Both the position numbers and the translations under genes were made by a program. A stretch of 34,438 nucleotides of DNA from an uncultured Pseudomonadota bacterium (GTDB lineage Bacteria > Pseudomonadota > Gammaproteobacteria > Competibacterales > Competibacteraceae), in the NCBI GenBank assembly GCA_903844665.1, contig CAIMUS010000156.1, positions 1 through 34,438 of the forward strand. The letters are read 5' to 3'. Shown here piece by piece: positions 1 through 30,329 of this stretch. Below the pieces are notes generated by a model. That model searched no databases. It saw nothing but the letters and a program-made list of their open reading frames with translations, and was not told the DNA's origin. The stretch's first letter is position 1. Each line of letters opens with the position of its first letter.

Positions 1-69
1 CATCTTCGCCGGCCTCAGGGCATCGACGCCAGTCAACAGCCGGCAAAATGCCGGCGCTCCCAGGGAATC

Positions 70-103
70 CCCGTAGGGGCGGTTCGCGAACCGCCCCTAC
101 GGG
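70..103. repeat. 34-bp perfect palindrome
   Basis: Positions 70-103 form a perfect inverted repeat with no spacer (two 17-bp arms, GC-rich). It lies about 100 bases past the stop codon of the hybrid kinase gene on the minus strand, so it could fold in that transcript. No T-run follows on either strand, so a classical terminator is not supported. Just before it, at 50-66, is a GCCGGCGCTCCCAGG segment that recurs at 8805-8820. This suggests a dispersed intergenic repeat. Confidence 0.75.
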
Positions 104-206
104 CTCAGCCTGCAAAGTGTCCCGACTTAAGTGGATACCCTATACAGGCTCTAAAGAAACAAAGCCACTCGCAGCCCGGAGTGCGGTTCGTTCCAGCCAT
201 CAACCT

Positions 207-3098
207 TCATTTCAACACTTCCTGGACCATTTTACTCCCGGCCACGGCGGCAGGCGCGGCCGCAAGCATGGCGCGCACTTTCTTCGCCAGGCTGGCTTTA
301 CGATAAGGTTTGGGCAATAATTCCACCCCGTCCTGGACCTGACCGTTGTGGATCAGGGCATGCTCGGTATAACCGGAGGTGAACAAGACCTTCAACTCCG
401 GCCGGATCTGCCGCGCTTCGCGCGCCAGATCCGCGCCACTCATGCCACCCGGCAGCACCACATCGGTAAACAGCAGAGCCACCGCCGGCCGTTCCGCCAA
501 CAGCCGCAAGGCCGTCCAGGCGTCACCGGCTGCCACGGTCTGATACCCTAAACTGTGCAGCATATTGACGGCAAGCTTGCGGACCTGGGCATCGTCTTCC
601 ACCACCATAATGGTCGCCGCCGTGAACTGCTGCGCCGGCTCGGTTAGCAGTTCTCCCGGTGGCGCGACGGTCTCCGTCTGCGCCTGGGGCAGATACAGGC
701 GGACGGTCGTACCCTGCTCCTCTTCGCTGTAAATGCTTACATGTCCCCCCGACTGCTTCATCAGTCCGTACACCATGCTCAGGCCGAGACCGCTGCCCTT
801 GCCCACCGGCTTGGTGGTGAAAAACGGTTCGAAGGCGTGTTCCACCACCGCCGGGGCCATCCCGACCCCGTTGTCGCTGACGATCAACATCACATAAAGT
901 CCAGGTTTGACATCCTCATGGCTGGCGGCATAGTCGGCATCGAGCCAGGTATTGGCGGTTTCGATGCCGAGAACGCCGCCCTGGGGCATGGCGTCCCGGG
1001 CATTCAGAGCCAGGTTGAGCAGGGCGTTTTCGAACTGCGCCGGGTCCACCAGCGCCAGCCAGAGATCGTTGGCCAGATCGGTCCGAATCTGAATGGTTTC
1101 GCCCAGGGTGCGCTGGAGTAAATCCAGCATGCCTTTGACCATCTTATTGAGATCGGTGGGCTGGGCCCGCAGCGGTTGCTGGCGGGAGTAGGCCAGCAGG
1201 CGTTGGGTCAGGGTGGCGCCTCGCTCCGCCGCCGCCACGGCCCGCTGCACCAGATCTTGCAAGGGCGGATTGCCCGCCAGTTGTTCGTTCAGTAATTCCA
1301 GATTGCCCAGCACGATGGCCAGCAGATTGTTGAAGTCATGGGCGACACCGCCGGTGAGATGGCCGATGGTTTCCATTTTCTGGACCTGCCGCAGGCGCGC
1401 CTCGGCGGCCCGGCGCTGGGTGATGTCGCGGGCAACCACCACGACCGCCGGCTTGCTGCCGGGCGGCGCTTCGAGCGGCGCGGTGCGGGACTCGAACCAG
1501 CGCCGGCCGGCGGCAAGCTCCAATTCGTATTCGGCGATCTGGATCTGCCGGGTCGCCAGCGCCCGCCGGATGATGCCGAGAAAATAGCCGGCCATCTCCG
1601 GCGGATGCACCTCGCTCAAGAGTCTTCCTTTGAGCGCAGCGGTATTGGTTCGGGAGAGGCGGTCCTGACCGGTCATGACCTCGATATAACGGCCATCCTC
1701 ATCCAGTTCGCACAACAGATCCGGCACGGCATTGCCGATGGCGCGCATGCGGGCCGCGCTTTCCTGCAAGGCTTCCTCGGCCTGTTTGCGCTCGGCGATC
1801 TCCTGGGTCAGGATCGCATTCGCCTGTTCCAGTTCCGCCGTTCGCTGCGCGATCCGTTGTTCCAGCGAGGCGTTGGCCTCACGCAGGGCCTCCCGCGCCT
1901 GATGCATGGAGGCCCGCATGCCGTTGAAGCTGCGGACAAGATCGCCCAGTTCATCCGCCCGTTCGACGGGAATATCCGCCGTCAGCCTGCCTGCCGCCAG
2001 TTCCTTGGCGGCCTGGGAGAGGGCGGCCAGGGGCTGGGCCAGGGCCCTGGCATTGCGATGGGATACGGCCCGGGCGACGATCAGCATGACGACGATCAGC
2101 AGCACCAGCAACCAGACCGTAATCGCACTGGTGGACCCGGCCGCCACGGCGCCCCGATCCATTCCCAGGGTCGCCTCCTTCGCCATGGCGGCCGCCAGGT
2201 CGATTGACCGGCCGGCCAGCGGGGCGGCCTCTTGCTCCATCCAATAGCGGGCTATGTTCCAGGTGGCGGCGCTGCGTTCCTGAATGAGCTTATCGGACAG
2301 GCCGGCAAAAGCCTGGAGATCGGCCTGCAAGCGCTGTAACAGATAACCCTGTTCGGGCGTCAGCAGCGCCTGTTGTGCGTCGACGGCGTTAAACACGGCG
2401 CGCGTCGCCTGCCAACTGTCCCGAAAGCGCTTGGCATACTCCAGTCCTGTTTCTCCCAGAATCTCCCGTAGTTGCAATTGCGTGAAGATGAACAGCCGTT
2501 GCAATTGCGCCAACTGGATGAGGAGTTCGCGGCGTTCCGGCCCGCCCGCCTGGCCCTTTTCCTGTTCCAACAGCGCCACCAGTAAGCCATCGATCGAGGT
2601 GGCCAGCGGTTGCACTTCGAATAGATAAGTCACCCGGGCCGGTTGATTGCCGGGCGTGCGGGCGACATCCTTCACCCACCACTGGGATTCCTTCAGGTCG
2701 GCGAGCAGGGTCGCAAGCTCCGCAAGGCGGGCCTGCTGGCGGGGCTTTTGCAAAAACTCCCGCTGCGCCTTCAGCGAAGCCATCGCCGGCTCGATCTCTT
2801 CGTTCCAGGCGGCCTGCCAGTCCGTCAGGAAATATTTATCGCCGAGGTTGACCCAACTGCCGAGCGCGGCGATGGAGTGCTGCACCCCGGCCAGCACCCG
2901 CAACGAGGCTTGCGACAACGGCCCGCTCTCATCGGCCAGTTGGATCACCTGGGAGCGCAGGACGAAGGTGGACGCCAGGGCGATACCCAGCATTCCCAGC
3001 CCGATCAAGGTCACGGCCAGATGCGATTTAAGCATCTGGCGGGCCAGCAGGGGTTGCTTGTGCCAGGGATCGAACAGGGAAAGCAGCCTGGATTTCAC
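207..3098 (-). CDS. Hybrid sensor histidine kinase with HAMP, PAS and C-terminal receiver domain
   Basis: A membrane hybrid histidine kinase of 963 residues. Near the N-terminus is a membrane segment (about 28-48). A long, mostly helical extracytoplasmic sensor region follows (about 50-320), then a second membrane segment (about 325-347) and a HAMP domain running into a coiled coil (to about 445). A PAS domain (about 450-565) precedes the HisKA region with the phosphoacceptor His near 587 in GGVAHDFNN. The ATPase domain shows the N box (NLALNARDAMP), G1 (DNGVGM) and G2 (GSGLGLS). A receiver domain (about 825-945) has the acidic pair VVEDD, the phospho-Asp near 879 (FTDVVLP) and the Lys of LPKPY. 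The HDFNN-type H box is typical of kinases with an attached receiver. Its ATG overlaps the stop of the upstream exported-protein gene as ATGA, so the two are probably translationally coupled. The ligand is unknown. Confidence 0.93.
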   Translation of the reverse strand: MKSRLLSLFDPWHKQPLLARQMLKSHLAVTLIGLGMLGIALASTFVLRSQVIQLADESGPLSQASLRVLAGVQHSIAALGSWVNLGDKYFLTDWQAAWNEEIEPAMASLKAQREFLQKPRQQARLAELATLLADLKESQWWVKDVARTPGNQPARVTYLFEVQPLATSIDGLLVALLEQEKGQAGGPERRELLIQLAQLQRLFIFTQLQLREILGETGLEYAKRFRDSWQATRAVFNAVDAQQALLTPEQGYLLQRLQADLQAFAGLSDKLIQERSAATWNIARYWMEQEAAPLAGRSIDLAAAMAKEATLGMDRGAVAAGSTSAITVWLLVLLIVVMLIVARAVSHRNARALAQPLAALSQAAKELAAGRLTADIPVERADELGDLVRSFNGMRASMHQAREALREANASLEQRIAQRTAELEQANAILTQEIAERKQAEEALQESAARMRAIGNAVPDLLCELDEDGRYIEVMTGQDRLSRTNTAALKGRLLSEVHPPEMAGYFLGIIRRALATRQIQIAEYELELAAGRRWFESRTAPLEAPPGSKPAVVVVARDITQRRAAEARLRQVQKMETIGHLTGGVAHDFNNLLAIVLGNLELLNEQLAGNPPLQDLVQRAVAAAERGATLTQRLLAYSRQQPLRAQPTDLNKMVKGMLDLLQRTLGETIQIRTDLANDLWLALVDPAQFENALLNLALNARDAMPQGGVLGIETANTWLDADYAASHEDVKPGLYVMLIVSDNGVGMAPAVVEHAFEPFFTTKPVGKGSGLGLSMVYGLMKQSGGHVSIYSEEEQGTTVRLYLPQAQTETVAPPGELLTEPAQQFTAATIMVVEDDAQVRKLAVNMLHSLGYQTVAAGDAWTALRLLAERPAVALLFTDVVLPGGMSGADLAREARQIRPELKVLFTSGYTEHALIHNGQVQDGVELLPKPYRKASLAKKVRAMLAAAPAAVAGSKMVQEVLK

Positions 3099-4918: not shown

Positions 4919-7582
4919 GTGGCGGACGCCGCCAGGCTGGACGCCGCCAGGCCTGCGGCTGGCACGGCCTTACTGCCGCTGGTGATCGAGAGTGCCGATC
5001 CGCTGGTGCAGTCGCTGCCCTGGGAATGCCTGCATCATCCGCAATACGGCTTTCTCGGTCAACACCGCGGCTTCACGCTGAGCCGCCGGCTGGCGGCGGC
5101 TGACACGCCGCCGCAAACGCTGCCGGCCGGTCCGCTGCAAGTGCTGCTGTTCACGTCCATGCCCGACGATCTGGACGCGGAGAAGGAACGGCTGGATGTG
5201 GAGAGCGAACAGGCCAGGGTGCTGGGGGCGCTGGACCCGCTGATTCAGGATGGACGGGTGCAACTCACCACCCCCGATGACGGCCGCTTTACCCATTTCC
5301 AGGCGCTGCTGCGGCAACAGTCGTTCCACCTGGTGTTTCTCAGCGGCCACGGTGAGTTCCGCGAGGACCCGCTGCGCCGTGAACCGCCCAAGGCGGTATT
5401 CATCTTCGAGGGTGAGGACGGCCACGCCGAGCCGGTCGAGGGTGGGCGCCTGGCGCAGGCGTTCATGGGGAGTGCGGTGCAGGCGGTGGTGCTGTCCGCC
5501 TGCCAGTCCGGCAAGTCGTCCTCGGACGCCCTCGGCGCCAGTCTGGCGGTGCAACTGCTGAACAGTGGCTTGCCGCATGTGGTGGGGATGCGTGAGTCCA
5601 TTCTGGATCTGGCCGGCATCCGCTTCGCCCAAGCCTTGTGTACCGCGCTGGGTCGCCAGGAGCGGTTGGATGTGGCGTTGCAGGAGGCGCGCGCGGCGAT
5701 TGCCCAACCGCTGGACCTGGCCGGTGCTCAGCGGGATGCGGCCAAGGCCGGGCAGGCGGAATTGACTTGGGGGCAATGGTGCCTGCCGTTGCTGTACAGC
5801 CGGGACCCGGCGCGACCGTTGATCGACTGGGCGTTCCAGCCGGCGCCGCCGAAACCGCCGTTGTTGCGTTATGAGGAACTGGCCGGTATGCCGTTGCCGC
5901 AGACCTTCATCGGCCGGCGGCGGGCGTTGCGGGAACTGGGCCGGGAGTTGCACGGCGGCGGGGCACGCCAGTGGCTGATCACCGCTGCCGGCGGTCAGGG
6001 CAAGACCAGTCTGGCGGGGCGGATTGCCCAGCGGCTGGAAAGCGACGGCTATCTGGTGCGGGCATATACGGCGCGGCAGGAACAGCCCTGGCAGGGGTTT
6101 GTCGCCGACTTGACGATGGCGCTGGAACCGGCGTTGCGGGAGCAGGTGGACCGGCAACTGGGCCGACTCCCGCCCCTGAATCAGGCCAAGCTGCTGGTGC
6201 GGGCGTTGCTGCAACAGACGCAGAACAAGCTGGTGCTGGTGCTGGACAATCTGGAGAGTGTGCAGGACCCGGCGACCAATCGAATGACCGATGACGCTAT
6301 CGCCGTCTGGCTGGCGGCCTGTCAGCCGGTCGCCGGGAGTCCGGCGCCCATCCTGCTGCTGACTTCCCGCTGGGTTATCCCCGGTTGGGAGGGCCCCAGC
6401 CGCGGACACTATCCGTTGCCGCCGCCGAGCTATGGCGATTTTCTGCGCTATCACCAGCATCTGGCTGGCGCCCGCTGGGAGTTGGAACGGTTGCGCCGTT
6501 TGTACAAGGCGCTGGCCGGCAATTTCAAAGGGTTGGAATTGTTCCACGGTTTGAGCCAGGTGGCAGCGGATGAGGATGCCTTTCTCCAGCAACTGGAACA
6601 GGCTCAAACGGGGCTGCAACTGTATATGGCGGTGGCCAAGCTGTTCGGCTATCTGCAACCGCCGGAACAGGAACTGCTCAATCGGCTGCGCGCCTATCAG
6701 GCGCCGGTCATTGTCGATGGGGTGCGGTTAATTGCCAGGGAGTTGGAGAAACCGGAAGATTTATTGCGGCGGTTGACCGGATTATCGCTGGTGGATGTGG
6801 AGTGGGAGCCGGAGTTGGGGATGAATCGCTATCGGCTGTCCCCGGTGATAGCGGATTGGCTGGCGGAGCAGCGGGAAGCACCGGCACTGGCGCTACGCCA
6901 GAAAGCGGCCCGCTATCAGCACTGGGTGTTCGAGCATCTGCGGTCCAACCTGGATCAGATGCTGATCGCTCATGAGGCGCTGCGGCAAGCCGAACTTGAC
7001 GAGGAGGCAGCCCGGTTGGCGCTGGATGAGGTTGTGCTTCGCTTTGACCTGTGGGGTCTGTATCACACTTTGCTCGAGGAATGGCTGCCGGCGTTGCGAG
7101 AGAGCCAGGATCAGGCGATGAAGGGATTGGCGTTTAACCGGTCCGGCAAGATTTGCGGCGCTGTCGGCGAATATGCTGACGCCATGAAATATCTGGAGGA
7201 GGCGCTGGCGATCTGTCGGGCGATTGGCAACCGTGCGGGAGAAGGGGCGACGCTCAAGAATATCGCGGTGATTTATGATGCCCAAAGCGACTACGCGCGA
7301 GCGTTGCGGTATCTGGAGGAGTCGCTGACGATCTGCCGGGTGCTGGGCGACCAGGCGGGTTTATGTGGGACATTGTTTAATATGGGATGTATACACTTTA
7401 TGAAGCAGGAACTCGATCAAGCCATTGCTGCCTTTGTAGCGGCTTACCGGATTGCCAGGGATATTGGTTATGCGCAAGTTCTCAGCGCATTGGATAAGCT
7501 GGCGAAGGAAATGGGTGGCACTGGTCTGGAATACTGGGAAGCGCTGGCACAGCAACGGCCATCCGAAGAAGCCGGCGGATGA
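4919..7582 (+). CDS. CHAT-domain protease fused to STAND-type NTPase and TPR repeats
   Basis: An 887-residue open frame beginning at an internal GTG; the natural start is probably the ATG at 4753, behind a one-base frameshift. The N-terminal CHAT (caspase-like) peptidase domain shows the catalytic His near 144 (LVFLSGHGEF) and Cys near 195 (VVLSACQSG). A STAND/NB-ARC-like NTPase follows: a FIGRRRALREL entry motif, a P-loop GGQGKTSL with Lys near 362, a Walker B LVLVLDNLE with Asp near 443, and a sensor-like ILLLTSRW. A helical middle region leads to at least three TPR units (about 735-855) of the type YADAMKYLEEALAICRAIGN. This is the plan of NLR-like bacterial sensors: TPRs sense, the NTPase oligomerises and the CHAT protease cuts a target. 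Antiphage or programmed-death function is inferred from architecture only. No obvious substrate gene is adjacent. Confidence 0.88.
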   Translation: MADAARLDAARPAAGTALLPLVIESADPLVQSLPWECLHHPQYGFLGQHRGFTLSRRLAAADTPPQTLPAGPLQVLLFTSMPDDLDAEKERLDVESEQARVLGALDPLIQDGRVQLTTPDDGRFTHFQALLRQQSFHLVFLSGHGEFREDPLRREPPKAVFIFEGEDGHAEPVEGGRLAQAFMGSAVQAVVLSACQSGKSSSDALGASLAVQLLNSGLPHVVGMRESILDLAGIRFAQALCTALGRQERLDVALQEARAAIAQPLDLAGAQRDAAKAGQAELTWGQWCLPLLYSRDPARPLIDWAFQPAPPKPPLLRYEELAGMPLPQTFIGRRRALRELGRELHGGGARQWLITAAGGQGKTSLAGRIAQRLESDGYLVRAYTARQEQPWQGFVADLTMALEPALREQVDRQLGRLPPLNQAKLLVRALLQQTQNKLVLVLDNLESVQDPATNRMTDDAIAVWLAACQPVAGSPAPILLLTSRWVIPGWEGPSRGHYPLPPPSYGDFLRYHQHLAGARWELERLRRLYKALAGNFKGLELFHGLSQVAADEDAFLQQLEQAQTGLQLYMAVAKLFGYLQPPEQELLNRLRAYQAPVIVDGVRLIARELEKPEDLLRRLTGLSLVDVEWEPELGMNRYRLSPVIADWLAEQREAPALALRQKAARYQHWVFEHLRSNLDQMLIAHEALRQAELDEEAARLALDEVVLRFDLWGLYHTLLEEWLPALRESQDQAMKGLAFNRSGKICGAVGEYADAMKYLEEALAICRAIGNRAGEGATLKNIAVIYDAQSDYARALRYLEESLTICRVLGDQAGLCGTLFNMGCIHFMKQELDQAIAAFVAAYRIARDIGYAQVLSALDKLAKEMGGTGLEYWEALAQQRPSEEAGG

Positions 7583-12000: not shown

Positions 12001-13920
12001 AACCGCGACGATATCACCGTGGTGGGCATCGGCGATATGGCCGGCGACGTGTTCGGCAACGGCCTGCTGCAATCCCGCCATCTCAAACTGGTGGCGGCCT
12101 TCAATCATCAGCATATCTTCCTCGATCCCAACCCCGAGCCGGAACTGAGCTATCGCGAGCGGGAACGGCTGTTCAAACTGCCGGGATCCACCTGGGACGA
12201 TTACGATAGAGCCTTGCTGTCACCGGGCGGCGGCATCTATTCCCGCGCCGCCAAAGTGATCCAGGTTTCTCCCGAAGCCCGCGTCGTGCTGGACCTCAAG
12301 GGGGAATCCTACACGCCCAATGAACTGATCCATCATCTGCTCAAGGCGCCGGTGGATCTGCTTTGGAACGGTGGCATCGGCGCATACATCAAGGCCGCTA
12401 CCGAAACTCATGCGGAAGTCGGGGACAAGGCCAACGATGCGCTGCGGGTCAACGGCGGGGAGTTGCGCTGCAAGGTGGTGGGGGAAGGCGGCAATCTGGG
12501 CTTTACCCAGCGCGGCCGGATCGAATACGCCCTTGTCGGCGGCAGAATCCTGACCGACGCCATCGACAACTCCGGCGGCGTGAACTGCTCGGACCATGAG
12601 GTCAATATCAAGATTCTGCTCGATCAGGTGGTCCGTAACGGCGATCTGACCGAAAAGCAGCGCAATCAACTGCTGGTTGACATGACCGGCGAGGTGGCGG
12701 AATTGGTGCTGCGACAGAATTACCAGCAACCCCAGGCGATCGGCCTCAGTTCGGCGCGGGCGGCGGACGTGCCGGGCGATTACGCCCGGCTGATTCGTAA
12801 CCTGGAGAAGGCCGGCAGGCTGGACCGGGCGCTGGAGTATCTGCCCGGTGACGAGGAACTGGCCGAACGGGAAACTGCCCGGCAGGGCTTGACGCCGCCG
12901 GAAATCGCGGTGCTGCTGGCCTACAGCAAGATTTACCTGTATCAGGAACTGCTGGCCTCCGATGTGCCGGAAGACCCCTATCTGAAAAACGAACTGCTGG
13001 CCTATTTTCCCAGGGCCATCCAGCAGGCGTTCAGCCAGGAGATGGAGAGCCACCCGCTACGACGGGAAATTATCGCCACCCATATCACCAACAGCCTGGT
13101 CAACCGCATGGGCGCCAGTTTCACCTTCCGGGTCTGGGAGGAGACCGGGGCAAGCTATCCCGACATCGCCCGCGCTTACACCGCCGCCCGCGAGATGTTC
13201 GACGCCCGCCGGCTGTGGAGCGCCATCGAGGCGCTGGATAACCAGGCGCCGGCGACTGTCCAGAATGCCATGCTGTTGCACAGCCGGCGGCTGCTGGAAC
13301 GGGCCTGTCTGTGGCTGCTGCGCCACCGCCGGCCGCCGCTTGCGATCGAGGCGGTGATCGGCCAGTTCAGCGCCGGCATCGCTACGATCAGGAACAGCCT
13401 GCCAGAGTTATTAAAGGCCACCGAGCAGGTGGAATTGCAGGCTGCCTGCCAGCGTTTTGGCGACGCCGCCGTGCCGGCGGAACTGGCCCAATGGGTGGCC
13501 AGCATGGATGCGCTGTACTGTGCGCTGGATCTGGTGGAGGTGGCGGAGCGGGCGCAGTTGCCGGTGGAGACGGTGGGGGCGGTCTACTTCGATCTGGTCA
13601 ACCGGTTGGAGTTGAACTGGCTGCGCCGTAATATCATCGAACTGCCCACCACCAGCCACTGGCAGAACCGGGCGCGGGCGGCCCTGTTGCAGGGACTGTA
13701 CGATCAGGGCCGGTTGCTGACGGCGGCGGTGCTGCAGGCCACCGACGACACGCTGACGCCGCCGGCGCGGCTGGAGGCCTGGATGGAGCAGAATCGACCG
13801 GGGGTGGAACGCTGCCGCAACAGTTTTGCCGAACTGCGCGCGGCTGGACAGCCGGATCTGGCGATGCTGCTGGTGGCCTTGCGGGAGACGGTGAACCTGG
13901 CGCGGGGGAGTGGAGGATGA
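9091..13920 (+). CDS. gdhB: NAD-specific glutamate dehydrogenase, large (about 180 kDa) type
   Basis: A 1609-residue enzyme of the bacterial large NAD-GDH family, which oxidatively deaminates glutamate to 2-oxoglutarate and ammonia using NAD. The length matches the family (about 1600). The N-terminal half carries ACT-like regulatory segments (DRPFLVDSITMELNRHGLTV and a later repeat). The catalytic core is recognisable from GGPVARGGLRWSDRKEDFRT, then MKAQMVKNAVIVPVGAKGGF with its conserved Lys residues, and the dinucleotide-binding GIGDMAGDVFGNGLL. A long helical C-terminal domain follows. The ATG at 9091 has a GGAGG site 7 bases upstream. It is transcribed divergently from arfA and stands alone. 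In the cell it supports growth on amino acids. The symbol gdhB follows Pseudomonas usage. Confidence 0.95.
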   Translation: MTSKAEEKKALLIDKIVTAVRQRLPADVAPLAQVFASQYFTWVSPEDLLDDEPEDLYGAVLAHWNFARQRQPGEVLIRVYNPDFEVHGWRSTHTVVETVNDDRPFLVDSITMELNRHGLTVHRTIHPVMRVRRDPTGYLQEILPHGSENGGAEAFMHFEVDRQSDPTFLESLSQNLRRVLDDVRVAVEDWQAMRGRLLEITAGLDSASLPPPARTELDEIQAFLQWTTDGNFTFLGYRDYDLLDQEGELNLRAVPGSGLGILRDDRADQVSRSFAMLTPQQRRLVYAPTLLILTKASARSTVHRPANLDYIGIKRFDQAGKVLGEQRFLGLYTSLAYNMRPQEIPLLRRKVERVLEQASLSPVSHSGKVLRHVLDTFPRDDLFQIGEAELYDIAIGILHLQERQRLRLFVREDVFGRFVFCIVYVPLDRYNTALRLRLQAILLRAFNGLSAEFSTQFSEAVLARVLFTIRTTPGQIPEYSVTELEERLREALLSWEDELQQALLEQCGEAQGNTLLQRYQQAFPVAYRDDFNPRIAVHDILRLESVGAEQPLVMHLYRAPEDPDRLLRFKLFGRQPIALSAVLPMLEKLGLRVLQARPYQITAGADTLWILDFDMVEDQGMAVDVVQVKENFQAAFARIWSGAMESDGFNRLVLGAGLNWREVVMLRAYCKYLLQTRAPFSQAYMEQTLGKHPAIANYLAELFQARFDPRLQLDQGRRTTVLGVAIEEALEQVSSLDEDRILRRFWNLIQATLRTNFFQTDPQGGPKEYLACKLNPAQIDELPKPRPMFEIFVYSPRVEAVHLRGGPVARGGLRWSDRKEDFRTEVLGLMKAQMVKNAVIVPVGAKGGFVVKRPPADRAALQQEGIYCYQTLIRGLLDLTDNRQGDAIVHPPQVVRYDADDSYLVVAADKGTATFSDIANGIAREYGFWLGDAFASGGSAGYDHKKMGITARGAWESVKRHFRELGKDIQNRDDITVVGIGDMAGDVFGNGLLQSRHLKLVAAFNHQHIFLDPNPEPELSYRERERLFKLPGSTWDDYDRALLSPGGGIYSRAAKVIQVSPEARVVLDLKGESYTPNELIHHLLKAPVDLLWNGGIGAYIKAATETHAEVGDKANDALRVNGGELRCKVVGEGGNLGFTQRGRIEYALVGGRILTDAIDNSGGVNCSDHEVNIKILLDQVVRNGDLTEKQRNQLLVDMTGEVAELVLRQNYQQPQAIGLSSARAADVPGDYARLIRNLEKAGRLDRALEYLPGDEELAERETARQGLTPPEIAVLLAYSKIYLYQELLASDVPEDPYLKNELLAYFPRAIQQAFSQEMESHPLRREIIATHITNSLVNRMGASFTFRVWEETGASYPDIARAYTAAREMFDARRLWSAIEALDNQAPATVQNAMLLHSRRLLERACLWLLRHRRPPLAIEAVIGQFSAGIATIRNSLPELLKATEQVELQAACQRFGDAAVPAELAQWVASMDALYCALDLVEVAERAQLPVETVGAVYFDLVNRLELNWLRRNIIELPTTSHWQNRARAALLQGLYDQGRLLTAAVLQATDDTLTPPARLEAWMEQNRPGVERCRNSFAELRAAGQPDLAMLLVALRETVNLARGSGG

Positions 13921-13988
13921 GTTGGGCTTATGCCGATCGTCCAATCCTGTACACACTGAAGATGAGGAAAAGTGAAAAAGATCAAAGA

Positions 13989-15689
13989 CTAAAGGGAAAA
14001 GATCCTGGCCAGGCGAAAACCCCCGCTGGGGCCCCCGTCGTGCGGGTCCCCGCCGACGCGCGCAGCCCCGCGCACCCCCCGCGGTTCGGTGTTCCACGAG
14101 CCGCCCCGCAGCACACACGGGCCGCTCGTACCGGGTTCCGCGCAGCGCTGCTCGCTCCCGTCGTAATTCTCGCTATACACCGAACAGGTCCACTCCCAGA
14201 CGTTGCCGTGCATGTCATGCAATCCCCAGGCATTAGGTGGAAACTGGCCAACCTTGACGGTCTTTTGCCGATAAACACCCTTACGTCCGTTACCATAAAC
14301 GTAATTGCCGTTATAATTGGCTTGGTCTGTGCTGATGGTGGCGCCGAAGTAAAACGGCGTAGTCGTTCCCGCCCGTGCCACATATTCCCATTCTGCTTCC
14401 TTTGGCAACCGGTACTCCTTGCCCGTTTGCTTACCTAACCAGTCCACATATGCCATCGCATCGTTCCAACTGACACAAACCACCGGTTGATCGTCAGTTT
14501 GCGAGAATCCTGGATTGCGCCAGTTCTTATCGGCATCCTGCTTCCATTCACTCCCAGTCAAGTAATAACAACCACCGCTCTTCTCAGCTTCCGTCTTATA
14601 TTTGGCTTCCTCCACAAAACGCTTGAATTGTCCTACAGTCACTTCATATTTGCCGATAGCAAAAGACTCCACCTCTACTTCATGCTGACGCTCGTTTTCT
14701 TTTCGTTCTGACTCATTATCTGGAGACCCCATCTGAAAACGGCCACCCGGAACCACCACCATCAATGGCCCCTGGCTGTCGTCTTTGAGCGGATCACGGA
14801 ACTCGACATCTTGCTTCAGTGCCTGGGCTGTCTGTTTTTGCAGATCCTGCACCTGCTGCGCTGGCCAGCCGTGAATATTTTCTATAGGAGGAAGTGGTGA
14901 TGCTTTAGGCACTGCACTTTGCTGAGGAGGTGGAGAAACAAGTGGGTTGGATTTTTTAGGTTCAGTGGATTCAGTGGTACCGTTTCCTTGCGCTGAACCC
15001 CTTGACACGGGTGAGTTTGAGACCGGCGCCTTCTCAAACCATACTTTCCCCAGATGATACACACCGGCACCTCCCACCACACCTAACACCAGCACAATCA
15101 GCAGTTGTACCCAAACACGCTGAGGCGGTACGGCTAATGATGGTGGTGAGGGAGAACTTGGCGACGGCGACGGAGGTTGTACTACCTGTTCGGCTGAGGG
15201 TGGCTTTGAGGGTGATTCTGGTGGCGGTGGCGGTGATGACACAGGCAAGGGTCGAATCGCCATCAGCTTTTCCGCAATGCGCACCAGTTCCGCTTCCTGC
15301 TGCGCCGGCGGCAACATGGATAATGGTGTCTTGGGATCACAGGCGGCCTGGAAATGCGCAATGGTCGTTGCTTTGTAAAGACTGTGCCGCACTGGCACCC
15401 AGAGAATGGTCAAGCCCCCTTTCCTGGATGCTTCCAGCAGCGGCGGCAGTTCATCCTTATCGATAAATTCAGACGCCAGAAAATGCGGACTGACCAATAG
15501 TACCGCCACCTTGGCCCTGGCCAGTGCCTTTTGTATCTCCTCCTTCCACATCTGCCCCGGTTGGATGCGCGTATCCGCCCACACGTCCAGCGTTCCCTGC
15601 CGCTGCAACGGCGCCAGCATGATTTGCAGTCGCTCCAGCCACTCACTGTCGGCATGGCTGTAGCTGATAAAGACCTGGTCACGGGTCAT
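13989..15689 (-). CDS. TIR domain - transmembrane - FGE/C-lectin-fold protein (putative DGR target)
   Basis: A 566-residue protein. Residues 1-135 are a TIR domain (QVFISYSHADSEWLERLQIM, then SPHFLASEFIDKDELPPLL with a candidate catalytic Glu). A Pro/Ser-rich linker, a single membrane segment (about 188-212) and another linker follow. The C-terminal 250 residues are a formylglycine-generating-enzyme-like fold: GGRFQMGSP, YEVTVGQFKRF, PVVCVSWNDAMAYVDWL, RLPKEAEWEYVARAGT, MHGNVWEWT, LRGGSW and GFRLAR. The catalytic Cys pair of true FGE, expected after GGSW, is absent, so this is a binding fold rather than an oxidase. The final segment is abruptly GC-rich and dominated by NNC and GGG codons, as in a DGR variable region. 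A Shine-Dalgarno-like AGGGGAG precedes the ATG. An effector with a diversifiable receptor is inferred. Confidence 0.88.
   Translation of the reverse strand: MTRDQVFISYSHADSEWLERLQIMLAPLQRQGTLDVWADTRIQPGQMWKEEIQKALARAKVAVLLVSPHFLASEFIDKDELPPLLEASRKGGLTILWVPVRHSLYKATTIAHFQAACDPKTPLSMLPPAQQEAELVRIAEKLMAIRPLPVSSPPPPPESPSKPPSAEQVVQPPSPSPSSPSPPSLAVPPQRVWVQLLIVLVLGVVGGAGVYHLGKVWFEKAPVSNSPVSRGSAQGNGTTESTEPKKSNPLVSPPPQQSAVPKASPLPPIENIHGWPAQQVQDLQKQTAQALKQDVEFRDPLKDDSQGPLMVVVPGGRFQMGSPDNESERKENERQHEVEVESFAIGKYEVTVGQFKRFVEEAKYKTEAEKSGGCYYLTGSEWKQDADKNWRNPGFSQTDDQPVVCVSWNDAMAYVDWLGKQTGKEYRLPKEAEWEYVARAGTTTPFYFGATISTDQANYNGNYVYGNGRKGVYRQKTVKVGQFPPNAWGLHDMHGNVWEWTCSVYSENYDGSEQRCAEPGTSGPCVLRGGSWNTEPRGVRGAARVGGDPHDGGPSGGFRLARIFSL
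14022..14093 (-). other. Putative DGR variable region (VR) of the TIR/FGE protein
   Basis: In the last 25 codons between GGSW and GFRLAR, the variable positions read AAC, ACC, GTC, GGC, GAC, CAC, GAC, GGC, CCC and AGC, interspersed with GGG codons. These are what adenine mutagenesis makes from AAC and AGG template codons, giving the usual R-N-N-R-N-P-N-N-R-N-N-N-type template. The stretch is far richer in GC than the upstream part of the gene. No reverse transcriptase or template repeat is visible in the window. Confidence 0.55.
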
Positions 15690-16908: not shown

Positions 16909-17730
16909 TCAGAACAATTCGGGTTGCCGTTCGTAGGGAATTGGGAATACGCCGATAATTACCCAAGGATTGGGGGCGCGGAAATGGTATTGTTGCGTTG
17001 TGCCGAGAAAAAAGTGCAGATCGCTCTGGCGGAACTCATCCAGATATTTGGCACGCACTTTTACCAGTGCCGCGCTCTCATCACCGTTGCTTCCTCGCAG
17101 ACAGTTCCAGAAAAGAGCACCCGCTTCCCAATCCAGAACCTGCATCTCGCCGGCTTGGCCCATTTCATCCTCGAAACGGTAGGAGAAGCTGTAGGGTAGC
17201 TTAAGGATCGGCTGGAAAGCCTGGCGCCACGTCTCTTCCGAGAACAGGTCTCCCTGGCGGGTGCGCTGGCGCATGTCTTCCAGCTTGGTCAGATCCCATT
17301 CCCGCTCCTCCTCTTCCCAGATAAACCCCTTGATTTTGGTTGGCTTGAAGACGGCCAGCGACAAGACATTCGCCTTGGCGTCTGCAATCAACGGCTGCAA
17401 TCGAGTATAGACTGACGCAGTCTGGAGCAGCAGGCGACGCCGTTCGCGCCAGTGGTGTTTCGTATCAAGGTGCCCCATCGGCTTAAGGTCATTCACGTCT
17501 ACCGGATGAAATGTCTCAGGACGGGGATCGGAACGGCTCTTCACCAGATTGCATTCCACCCAGTCAAACTTGCGGTATTGTTCCGACTCATTCAGCCGCC
17601 GGAAGGGAACCGGATAAATTCGGACCCAGGAGCCATCTTCTCGCACACCCGCCGTGCACACGGTTTCTCCATACTTACGCGAGAGTGTAGGGTAGGTCTT
17701 AACCGTAACCAGAATTTTTTCCCTGGGCAT
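16909..17730 (-). CDS. Conserved hypothetical protein in DUF488 operon
   Basis: A 273-residue soluble protein starting MPREKILVTVKTYPTLSRKY, followed by GETVCTAGVREDGSWVRIYP. The ATG at 17730 is used because the longer frame needs a TTG inside the preceding gene. No signal peptide or membrane segment is seen. The N-terminal 70 residues look like a small beta-rich domain; the rest is charged, ending with LHFFLGTTQQYHFRAPNPWV. It starts 13 bases after the DUF488 gene, so the two are almost certainly co-transcribed. From memory, this kind of protein recurs beside DUF488 proteins, but its role is unknown. Confidence 0.78.
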   Translation of the reverse strand: MPREKILVTVKTYPTLSRKYGETVCTAGVREDGSWVRIYPVPFRRLNESEQYRKFDWVECNLVKSRSDPRPETFHPVDVNDLKPMGHLDTKHHWRERRRLLLQTASVYTRLQPLIADAKANVLSLAVFKPTKIKGFIWEEEEREWDLTKLEDMRQRTRQGDLFSEETWRQAFQPILKLPYSFSYRFEDEMGQAGEMQVLDWEAGALFWNCLRGSNGDESAALVKVRAKYLDEFRQSDLHFFLGTTQQYHFRAPNPWVIIGVFPIPYERQPELF

Positions 17731-17743
17731 GGGTTTTTCCAGT

Positions 17744-18640
17744 TTATAGATGGGTGGCGGCGAGTTCCCGCCCAAATCGTTGTTCCAATGCCTTGGCCAC
17801 GCAATGCCGATGACATTGCTCGGGACGGCGTTCGAAGCATGTCAGCGCTACGCGCTGTTGTTCCAAGCGCACCCAGCGCGCAATGCGTTCCAGCGCCTCC
17901 TCCTGAGCCGGTAGATCATGGTGCTCGTAGTCGGCAAAAAGGGCATCATAGTCCGCCTGCCGCTCCAACGTCCGGCGCCGTTCGGAGGCGATCCCAAGTT
18001 CAGGCAGGTGCTCGTAGCGCACTCCCACACTGTCGCAGGCACGGCTCAACGTGCTCTTCGAGAAACCATACTTGCGGCTTAACGCATTACGCCGCACATC
18101 ACACAACAGCGTGATTCCGGCCTGGATAAGGCGGTTCAGGTAAGCCTCAAGACTCCGCCCCTGGTAGCCGATGGTGTACAAGCCAAGTGGGAGGGGGACC
18201 GGGCGTGCATCCCGGATGGCCTGAAGCGCCGCCGCATCGTCGGCCAGTACCCGATTCACTATCTTACTGCGGATAGCGTAATAGGGATGGCGGCGATAGA
18301 TATATTTCACCAGTTCATCGCCGCGTATCCCGGCATGGCAGCGGGCAAAGCGGTCTATTCTCACCTGGTCGGCCGTGCCCAGCCGAGCCTCGCGATGGCC
18401 CGCCTCGGTCAGGCTCCATCGCTCCCCGTCAGCCAGAAGACCTTGCTCGATTAGCCGTCGCTTGTCCGCATAGGAGGTGAAAGAAAAACCGCCGAAGCGA
18501 TAGGGTACGAAGTCGTAGGTCGGCTCCGTTTCTTCTTCCTGAACGTAAAGGAAGAGCAATTTCTGGAAATCCAGGCTGCTCACATTCCCTCCCAGTGCAT
18601 CCAGGAGAGCAAGAAGTCGTCTATGGCGTTCAAGAAGCAT
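17744..18640 (-). CDS. DUF488 protein with N-terminal DUF4065/SocA-like domain
   Basis: A 298-residue two-part protein. The C-terminal part (about 145-298) is DUF488: LYTIGYQGRSLEAYLNRLIQ, LLCDVRRNALSRKYGFSK, LSRACDSVGVRYEHLPELGI, and the Cys-rich TCFERRPEQCHRHC near the end. The N-terminal part (about 1-100) reads SLDFQKLLFLYVQEEE, YDFVPYRFGGFSFTSYADK and LIEQGLL. That pattern resembles the DUF4065/Panacea antitoxin-like fold, including a winged-helix type SLTEAGH. Such a fusion suggests a regulatory or conflict role. It is the first gene of a two-gene minus-strand operon. Confidence 0.82.
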   Translation of the reverse strand: MLLERHRRLLALLDALGGNVSSLDFQKLLFLYVQEEETEPTYDFVPYRFGGFSFTSYADKRRLIEQGLLADGERWSLTEAGHREARLGTADQVRIDRFARCHAGIRGDELVKYIYRRHPYYAIRSKIVNRVLADDAAALQAIRDARPVPLPLGLYTIGYQGRSLEAYLNRLIQAGITLLCDVRRNALSRKYGFSKSTLSRACDSVGVRYEHLPELGIASERRRTLERQADYDALFADYEHHDLPAQEEALERIARWVRLEQQRVALTCFERRPEQCHRHCVAKALEQRFGRELAATHL

Positions 18641-29236: not shown

Positions 29237-29253
29237 AAAGTAATAGTTACTTT
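29237..29253 (-). promoter_or_regulatory. Palindromic operator candidate for vapB
   Basis: AAAGTAA and TTACTTT flank a 3-base spacer, 14-30 bases before the vapB ATG. It overlaps the last codons and stop of tnpB (29247), so the insertion element abuts the control region. Confidence 0.45.
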
Positions 29254-30329
29254 CCTGATAGAAACTCATGGAAAGCTTTGAAACCGGCACCATATTGTCC
29301 GGTGAGAAACCGGGTTAAGATGTTCAGCGACCCGACGTAGTCGGCATCGTCCGAGTACCCACACCTCAGACACTGAAACACCTTTCCCACCCGATTTTCC
29401 CGCTGAGTATGGGAACAGGTCGGAACAGGACATGTTTGACTGGTTTTAGCGGGGTTGACCGTGCGGAAGCGAACACGGTTCTCTTCCGCACGCATCTGAA
29501 TGACTTTCAGCAGTTCCCGATAATTCCAGTGACTCAACGTCTTTCTAAAACCTTTACTCCGCTTGCCTTTGCCTTTTTTAAGACTCTTTAACCGTTCAAC
29601 CACGATCAAACCGACTTCCTTAGGCAGTTGATTAAAAAATATCTTAACGATCCGGTGTAAGTAATAACTCAACTCCTTTTTAGCGCGTTTATACGCTTTG
29701 GAATGTTGCTTTTTACGTTTTATTTTATTGATTAGAGCTTTGATTTGGTCGCCAAACCACGATTTGTTACTGGCCGTCAACAGGCTATTAATTCCAACGT
29801 CAATACCGAGTGCGTATGGCGATGTGCTTTTCTGTCCAACCTCCTTCTCAAAGGAAATCTGGATATACTCTCGGTGGACGATAATAGAAGTTGCCCAGTT
29901 CCAATCCGCGTACTGGTTGAAGTGGAAATGCTGTTTTAACGGAATATAAAAACTGTCTCCGGTTCCGGTCGAGTGAATTTTCAACCAGAGATCAAAGTGA
30001 TTGCGGCCCGATTCCAAGCCAACGACTTGGGAAGACCAGATACATTTCTTGCCGGTATGTCTGGGTTTTGTGCTCTTCGCTTCCTTGGCCCCATTCACCA
30101 TTCCCAGGGCTTCCCTGGCCGCGCACTGACGCATTCTGGCGGACAACCCGCTAGCCGGAATCGCATAGAGGTCTTTCGTCAACTGCCCCGCCACAAAATC
30201 ATTTTCCCAAAACATATCAATAAAGATATTAACGACCCTACTATATTCGTTCATTATTTCATAGAGCCGTTGCTTTTTAGATTCAGTGGCGAACTTGAGG
30301 GTACACTTAGAACTTCTTTTAATCTTCAT
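29247..30329 (-). CDS. tnpB: TnpB-type RNA-guided endonuclease of an IS607-like element
   Basis: A 360-residue TnpB. The N-terminal wedge-like domain (SSKCTLKFATESKKQRLYEI) leads into a split RuvC nuclease: Asp in ALGIDVGINSLL, Glu in LIVVERLKSLKKG, and Asp in SDDADYVGSLNI. A four-Cys zinc ribbon (SQTCPVPTC and FQCLRCGYS) lies between the last two. All RuvC acidic residues are present, so it should be an active RNA-guided nuclease rather than a dead repressor. The gene is directly downstream of a truncated serine recombinase. A guide (omega) RNA would be expected at its 3' end, but only 24 bases separate its stop from vapB. Confidence 0.92.
   Translation of the reverse strand: MKIKRSSKCTLKFATESKKQRLYEIMNEYSRVVNIFIDMFWENDFVAGQLTKDLYAIPASGLSARMRQCAAREALGMVNGAKEAKSTKPRHTGKKCIWSSQVVGLESGRNHFDLWLKIHSTGTGDSFYIPLKQHFHFNQYADWNWATSIIVHREYIQISFEKEVGQKSTSPYALGIDVGINSLLTASNKSWFGDQIKALINKIKRKKQHSKAYKRAKKELSYYLHRIVKIFFNQLPKEVGLIVVERLKSLKKGKGKRSKGFRKTLSHWNYRELLKVIQMRAEENRVRFRTVNPAKTSQTCPVPTCSHTQRENRVGKVFQCLRCGYSDDADYVGSLNILTRFLTGQYGAGFKAFHEFLSGK

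What the first reader, a model, noticed from the sequence alone, without database searches (positions are those of the whole stretch)
13989..14110. TIR/FGE protein ends in a segment that looks like a diversity-generating retroelement variable region
Seen: between GGSW and GFRLAR the codons are almost all NNC (AAC, ACC, GTC, GGC, GAC, CAC, GAC, GGC, CCC, AGC) or GGG, and GC content jumps against the rest of the gene. Adenine-directed mutagenesis of a template of AAC and AGG codons gives exactly this set. Known: many DGR targets are C-lectin/FGE-fold proteins, often with effector or signalling domains at the N-terminus. Inferred: this TIR effector has a retro-diversified receptor. A reverse transcriptase and template repeat are not in the window and would act in trans.
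Basis: partly seen in the sequence, partly recalled or inferred. Interest (0 to 1): 0.8.

Follow-up and report, generated by a model that had tools for sequence, protein, structure and literature searches.

The report
Retroelement-diversified TIR receptor-like protein
The end of this TIR-domain protein carries the mark of being rewritten from a template elsewhere in the same genome by a known kind of mutation-making retroelement, which probably lets the bacterium vary what this immune-type protein recognises.

Summary
The 566-aa TIR-FGE protein (13989-15689, minus) ends in a variable region (VR, 14005-14125) of a diversity-generating retroelement (DGR). The template repeat (TR) lies on another contig, C333:10277-10397, just 3' of a DGR reverse transcriptase (RT) and an Avd gene. 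Template and VR differ at 19 of 121 positions, 15 at template adenines (25 of 121 are A; P=1.6e-9). Five other places in the genome carry clean VRs of this template (14-19 changes at A, 0-4 elsewhere), among them caspase-FGE and NACHT-FGE genes; three further RT+TR loci account for ten more VRs. In two relatives TIR-FGE genes sit beside RT and TR, with substitutions only at template adenines. Orthologues in two relatives differ at 13 of 26 template-A columns and 1 of 94 others. Four non-A differences stand here; two vanish if the template once had the codon seen in three relatives. Shown: anatomy and adenine signature. Inferred: present activity, membrane topology, antigen sensing, TIR output. 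A new member of a published kind (DGR targets in conflict systems), not a new category.

The parts
13989..15689 (-). TIR-FGE gene, 566 aa, open throughout
15381..15674 (-). TIR domain (residues 6-103)
   Evidence: Pfam TIR_2 58.2 bits, cut-off 28; PADLOC ThsB-type TIR E=4.7e-19
15060..15116 (-). predicted transmembrane helix (residues 192-210) after a proline-rich linker
   Evidence: Kyte-Doolittle mean 2.36 over 19 residues; helix 191-219 in the AlphaFold2 model, low confidence
14004..14768 (-). FGE-sulfatase / C-type-lectin-fold domain (residues 308-562)
   Evidence: Pfam FGE-sulfatase 204.5 bits, cut-off 23.3; solved relatives PvdO, FGE and Treponema TvpA 2y3c
14005..14125 (-). DGR variable region (VR): 121 nt matching TR C333:10277-10397 with 19 differences, 15 at TR adenines
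14090..14125 (-). constant 5' flank of the VR, 36 nt identical to the TR
14024..14089 (-). stretch holding all 19 TR-VR differences
14005..14023 (-). constant 3' flank (19 nt identical to the TR), place where the initiation-of-mutagenic-homing sequence is expected
   Evidence: identity; the role is recalled from DGR biology, not tested

Best explanation
The 3' end of this gene is a remote (trans) target of the DGR on contig C333. The TR just 3' of the RT gene is transcribed; RT with Avd copies it into cDNA and puts random bases opposite adenines; the cDNA replaces the homologous VR at 14005-14125 between constant flanks. The 16 adenine-bearing template codons are mostly AAC and AGG, so the segment can vary widely with no stop at AAC or AGG codons (about 10^13 amino-acid combinations). 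The varied residues lie at the end of an FGE-type C-type-lectin fold, which acts as a variable binding face, joined through a proline-rich linker and probably one membrane helix to an N-terminal TIR domain. Most likely job: a sensor with changeable specificity that switches on a TIR output (NAD+ cleavage or a signal made from NAD+) in defence or self/non-self conflict. Shown here: gene anatomy, template, RT and Avd, adenine bias, cis arrangement and allele variation in relatives. Inferred: present activity, topology, ligand binding, TIR catalysis, defence role.
For: Template and signature: 15 of 19 TR-VR differences at A. Machinery: RVT_1 over cut-off; best solved relative of the RT is 8ub7 at 4.2e-50, next 1.6e-15; Avd model NF033474 93.2 bits, cut-off 80. 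Same template, other genes: C333, C107, C319, C59, C132 with 16/0, 19/0, 17/3, 17/4, 14/2 substitutions at A/elsewhere (C333 also a 1-nt insertion). The window gene and these five are 51-67% identical in the 240 nt upstream, 87-97% identical at non-A template columns and 10-45% at A columns (VR columns 0-94). Relatives: L107 and L106 carry TIR-FGE genes within about 2.3 kb of RT and TR; VR changes 11/0, 15/0 and 19/0 plus a 1-nt deletion at an A. G024 versus G033 orthologues: 13 of 26 A columns and 1 of 94 others differ, 97% identity over 633 nt before the VR. Control: 12 of 30 FGE loci with no clean VR give P no lower than 4.8e-4. TIR Glu80 aligns with the Glu of the 'EL' motif in 3h16 (its catalytic role is recalled).
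Against: Four of the window's 19 differences are not at adenines of today's TR; two remain unexplained even with the relatives' codon. FGE genes without a clean VR also show mild A enrichment against the TR (17 of 46 and 17 of 42 differences, P 6.5e-4 and 4.8e-4), so only strong signals count. No reads were available, so variation within this strain is not shown. No DNA hairpin was found in the 111 nt spanning the VR end and downstream (z 0.87). The structure model is weak (mean pLDDT 56.6). The membrane topology is ambiguous by charge.
Confidence: 0.88

Rival explanations
1. A former DGR target: written from this template family in the past, no longer rewritten, now drifting.
For: Four non-A differences, two of them matching an older template state (AAC where today's TR has GAG). 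The gene is far from the RT: template 784 nt from the end of C333, VR 14 kb from the nearer end of its own contig.
Against: The gene and VR are open, RT and Avd are full-length, both flanks of the VR are identical to the TR for 36 and 19 nt.
Confidence: 0.25
2. The VR was last written by a different template: another TR copy missing from this assembly, or a DGR that once lay beside the gene, as in L106 and L107.
For: Two unexplained non-A changes (AGG AAC to GGC GGG); a cis arrangement in relatives; 348 contigs, 98.93% complete.
Against: The TR search of the own genome gave 9 matches, all accounted for as one TR and eight VR or VR-like places. The C333 template matches the window VR at every non-A position but four.
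Confidence: 0.12
3. Ordinary paralogue divergence or biased codon use in a GC-rich gene end, no retroelement.
For: FGE C-termini are GC-rich in this genome and mild A enrichment occurs without a DGR.
Against: Identity is high at non-A template columns and low at A columns across genes that are half different upstream; C107 and the relatives' VRs show substitutions at A only.
Confidence: 0.01

Closest known systems
DGRs diversifying conflict-system sensors in Thiohalocapsa PB-PSB1 and other multicellular bacteria (PMC10907252; abstract, section 6 and passages seen)
   Same: Several RTs per genome, FGE/CLec C-terminal VRs fused to NACHT, STAND, TIR or peptidase parts, some remote targets, some membrane-spanning targets, a host lineage of aggregate-forming bacteria (that paper names Accumulibacter of wastewater reactors). 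The C333 RT is 64% identical to one of a Thiohalocapsa MAG.
   Different: Here a short TIR-linker-FGE protein without NTPase is the target, one template serves at least six places with different N-termini, and the host family is Competibacteraceae, for which one search found 0 papers (Contendobacter) and one off-topic paper (Competibacter, listing only).
Treponema denticola DGR with TvpA and remote FGE targets (PMC4891356, passages seen)
   Same: One TR and one RT serving up to seven FGE-domain genes, several remote, most changes at template adenines. The window FGE domain matches TvpA 2y3c, E=1.7e-9.
   Different: Here the targets carry effector-type N-termini (TIR, caspase, NACHT), and the genome has three more RT+TR loci.
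Cyanobacterial DGR variable proteins and remote paralogues (PMC7517822, passages seen)
   Same: C-terminal CLec domains joined to varied signalling domains including TIR-like; many remote targets.
   Different: There kinases are the most common partner; the window protein is a TIR fusion in a gammaproteobacterium.
VMAP and related NTP-dependent conflict systems (PMC7159879, passages seen)
   Same: FGS/FGE domains and TIR domains named as effectors linked to DGRs in gammaproteobacterial and cyanobacterial systems.
   Different: No MoxR-vWA partner was looked for or seen next to the window gene.
Bordetella phage BPP-1 DGR (recalled; PDB 8ub7, its identity as the BPP-1 complex is recalled)
   Same: RT, Avd, TR, A-directed change, C-type-lectin-fold target.
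   Different: Cellular, remote target, FGE-type rather than Mtd-type protein.

Membership tests
Diversity-generating retroelement (system) | reverse transcriptase of the DGR group | tested here: met
   RVT_1; best PDB match 8ub7 4.2e-50 against 1.6e-15 for a group II intron RT. The [IVL]GxxxSQ motif (recalled as diagnostic) is in C333 (IGNLTSQ), C96 and C114; C10 has LGGYLSH.
Diversity-generating retroelement (system) | template repeat near the RT | tested here: met
   TR C333:10277-10397 just 3' of the RT. A TR-like repeat follows the RT in 10 of 12 loci looked at, starting within 85 nt of the RT match in nine; none found within 900 nt in L110 and L116.
Diversity-generating retroelement (system) | variable repeat at the 3' end of a target gene, differing from the TR at adenines | tested here: met
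   window: 15 of 19 at A; four exceptions, two explained
Diversity-generating retroelement (system) | accessory protein Avd (common, not universal) | tested here: met
   L004:876-1304, NF033474 93.2 bits (cut-off 80), bAvd 55.3 bits (cut-off 40)
Diversity-generating retroelement (system) | C-type-lectin-fold (FGE/CLec) target domain | tested here: met
   Pfam FGE-sulfatase 204.5 bits; TvpA 2y3c match; Foldseek best PvdO 2.6e-16 on a weak model, TvpA not among the 50 rows shown
Diversity-generating retroelement (system) | mutagenic retrohoming takes place | not testable with these tools
   no reads or experiments; indirect support from allele differences between relatives
Diversity-generating retroelement (system) | hairpin/cruciform downstream of the VR (in some DGRs) | tested here: inconclusive
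   none in window 13900-14010 (z 0.87); not present in all DGRs (recalled)
Clade 5 DGRs of multicellular bacteria (PMC10907252) | RT falls in clade 5 of the published tree | not tested
   no reference tree here; only 64% identity to a Thiohalocapsa MAG RT
TIR NADase / defence TIR | TIR fold with catalytic Glu | tested here: inconclusive
   TIR_2 hit; Glu80 aligned with Glu of 3h16; conserved in the four TIR-FGE proteins of alignment A1; activity not tested

The most novel reading that the evidence does not exclude
A bacterial protein built like a Toll-type receptor whose sensing part is rewritten by reverse transcription: hypervariable FGE domain outside the inner membrane, one membrane helix, TIR domain inside. 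One template supplies variants to TIR, caspase and NACHT fusions alike, so a single adenine-coded repertoire of binding faces feeds several different cell-death or alarm outputs.
Probability: 0.35. Interest if true: 0.72.

Novelty: new member of a known kind. Interest (0 to 1): 0.47.

Why it matters
If the reading holds, this bacterium keeps a changeable set of recognition domains wired to immune-type effectors, a form of adaptive sensing in single-celled organisms that live in flocs. The published idea (PMC10907252) is untested in the laboratory; a short TIR-FGE protein with its own DGR is a far simpler test object than the large NACHT or vWA targets. The relatives L106 and L107, where RT, template and TIR-FGE sit together in a few kilobases, make the question directly testable.

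Tried and rejected
Group II intron RTs: of 7 RVT_1 hits, those on C195, C36 and C248 look by eye like group II intron pieces (QGG..SPLLANLYL) and were set aside; no model was run on them.

RT open frame reading through the TR as a special design: it reads wholly through in L117, L106 and L107, ends inside the TR-like stretch in L108, L111, L112, L113 and L114, and before it in L109 and L115. Rejected as a conserved feature; a template poor in T has few stop codons.

Second template in the genome for the two unexplained changes: not found (9 matches in G000). C239 as a target: 14 of 30 differences at A, P 9.9e-4, no better than FGE controls, not counted. C317 (17 of 31, P 4.2e-7) and C30 (17 of 30, P 1.7e-8) kept apart as doubtful or older. 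Tandem repeats around the gene: none. DNA hairpin downstream: none. Avd against solved structures: no match at E 0.01. Structure: model too weak to map the variable residues; Foldseek only repeats the FGE call. Papers: searches gave no report of this gene.

Full report
What was claimed.

The observation. The gene at 13989-15689 (minus) codes for 566 aa with TIR_2 at residues 6-103 and FGE-sulfatase at 308-562. Between GGSW and GFRLAR there are 24 codons, 12 NNC and 5 GGG; GC is 83% against 54% before. So the pattern is real, slightly overstated, and a little off in its coordinates.

The template. A DNA search of that genome with the gene end gave 15 matches. One, C333:10277-10397, is a repeat full of unaltered AAC and AGG codons just 3' of an RT gene. 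Over 121 aligned positions it differs from the window at 19; 15 are at template adenines (2 to C, 12 to G, 1 to T), 4 elsewhere; P=1.6e-9 for 25 adenines in 121. The first 36 and last 19 positions are identical.

The four exceptions. Two are in one codon, GAG in the template and CCC in the window. Three related genomes have AAC there (L024, L025, L029). With AAC the count becomes 16 at A and 2 elsewhere; the C319 VR likewise goes from 17/3 to 18/1. So these VRs probably predate a change in the template. The other two (AGG AAC to GGC GGG) stay unexplained.

The machinery. C333 holds an RT of 410 aa by open frame whose best solved relative is 8ub7 at 4.2e-50, far ahead of a group II intron RT at 1.6e-15, and an Avd gene over the NCBIfam and Pfam cut-offs. 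NCBIfam has no DGR RT model that matched; the RT scored under cut-off on group II and DRT models. The tblastn search of phages found 145 records, all under 60% identity.

Other targets. The genome has 35 FGE matches. Thirty were held as loci and compared with four templates, with eight places re-examined after masking the templates. Of the 30, 15 are clean VRs (P 5e-8 or less and at most 4 non-A substitutions), 3 are doubtful (C317, C30, C239) and 12 show none; a sixteenth clean VR is C114:16202-16414. By template: C333 six (C156, C333, C107, C319, C59, C132), C10 two, C96 two, C114 six (C114 twice, C67 twice, C310, C268). Of the five FGE matches without a locus, three lie on the templates of C10, C96 and C114 by coordinates, one is C114:16202, and C17 was not examined. 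The partners differ: C319 has a caspase domain, C333 NACHT, and the doubtful C317 nSTAND1; C59 and C132 show only FGE in Pfam. C107 is only a 131-aa open frame covering the last part of FGE, so it may be a fragment. The 12 loci without VR are the control: their lowest P is 4.8e-4.

Why not plain paralogy. In the 240 nt before the VR the window gene is 51-67% identical to the five others; at non-adenine template columns of the VR it is 87-97% identical, at adenine columns 10-45%. Only copying from a common template with change at adenines gives that pattern.

Relatives. A search for the RT in named genomes gave 11 loci; two are from the same family as the window genome, as the same contig positions recur in G033 and G026, both listed as same family. 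This is how I place the window genome in Competibacteraceae; it is an inference. In L107 (Competibacteraceae HKST-UBA195) one TIR-FGE gene lies before the RT and a second after the TR; their VRs show 11 and 15 substitutions, all at template A. The second gene is interrupted by a run of N in the assembly; I take it as one gene because its orthologue L084 in G024 is whole (500 aa). In L106 (Contendobacter SCELSE-2-Con) a Metallophos-NACHT-FGE gene (15 at A, 0 elsewhere) lies before the RT and a TIR-FGE gene after the TR (19 at A, 0 elsewhere, one 1-nt deletion). So TIR-FGE is a cis target in the family, and the window copy is a remote one. The G024 and G033 orthologues are 97% identical over 633 nt before the VR; inside the VR they differ at 13 of 26 adenine columns and 1 of 94 others (P 1.5e-9). 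The template used is that of G033; G024's own template was not identified. In all, 10 of 39 genomes of the family have a TIR match at E 1e-10 or better; TIR-FGE fusions were confirmed only for the window, G024, G026 and two genes of G033, the rest were not opened.

Protein reading. A hydrophobic stretch follows the proline-rich linker in the window protein (192-210) and in L084 (179-197), and by eye in the second L107 gene; L106 and the first L107 gene have none at the same threshold. So soluble and membrane forms exist side by side. The charges on the two sides of the helix do not settle the topology; a cytosolic TIR is assumed because its substrate NAD+ is there. Glu80 aligns with the Glu of the EL motif of 3h16; that this is catalytic is recalled. 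The AlphaFold2 model is weak (56.6).

Known or new. The kind is published. PMC10907252 (abstract, section 6, passages) describes clade 5 DGRs in aggregate-forming bacteria, with FGE/CLec sensors fused to NACHT, STAND, TIR and peptidase parts, and names wastewater Accumulibacter. PMC7517822 (passages) reports TIR-like partners and 76 remote targets in cyanobacteria. PMC4891356 (passages) reports one template with seven FGE targets in Treponema. PMC8144416 (passages) says most cellular targets have a membrane segment or signal peptide. Searches for DGR with Contendobacter gave no paper, with Competibacter one unrelated, with TIR domain six; supplements were not searched. I therefore rate it a new member of a known kind.

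Verdict. That this is a DGR variable region I hold at about 0.97; that the C333 template is its present template at about 0.85; that the protein is a sensor with a TIR output at about 0.6; that the FGE part is outside the membrane at about 0.5.

Noticed in passing
G000 contigs C10, C96, C114 (L124, L125, L126): Three more RT+TR loci with ten clean VRs between them (18/17, 19/19, 13/11, 16/16, 16/15, 13/12, 17/16, 14/13 differences/at A; C310 18/15 and C268 17/16). The C10 RT has SH in place of SQ in its motif.
   Followed up: partly
L117:8640-8758 (C333) and L106:8714-8832: Two VRs differ from their template by a 1-nt indel as well, so the last residues are read in another frame (GFSPGQ, SVSPGP instead of GFRLAR).
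   Followed up: partly
window 16909-18640, minus: Two adjacent genes match the candidate defence pair PDC-M19B and PDC-M19A (E 3.3e-107 and 9e-102), about 1.2 kb from the TIR-FGE gene.
   Followed up: no
window 4919-7582, plus: 887-aa protein; by eye CHAT-like N-terminus, P-loop GGQGKT and TPR-like C-terminus; PADLOC gives only a TPR match (2.1e-11).
   Followed up: no
window 29247-30329, minus: 360-aa ORF that looks by eye like an IS200/IS605 TnpB protein (zinc-finger cysteines near its end).
   Followed up: no
window 1-320 and L004:2869-3264: A shared short repeated stretch (both read ...GNPRRGGSRTAPTGSACK...) near the ends of contigs C156 and C333, perhaps a dispersed repeat that broke the assembly.
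   Followed up: no
L108 (G026, JARSSO010000026.1): A second DGR in the same relative with its own TR; VRs L041, L044 and L048 fit the first template (15, 15, 19 at A, 0 elsewhere), not this one.
   Followed up: partly
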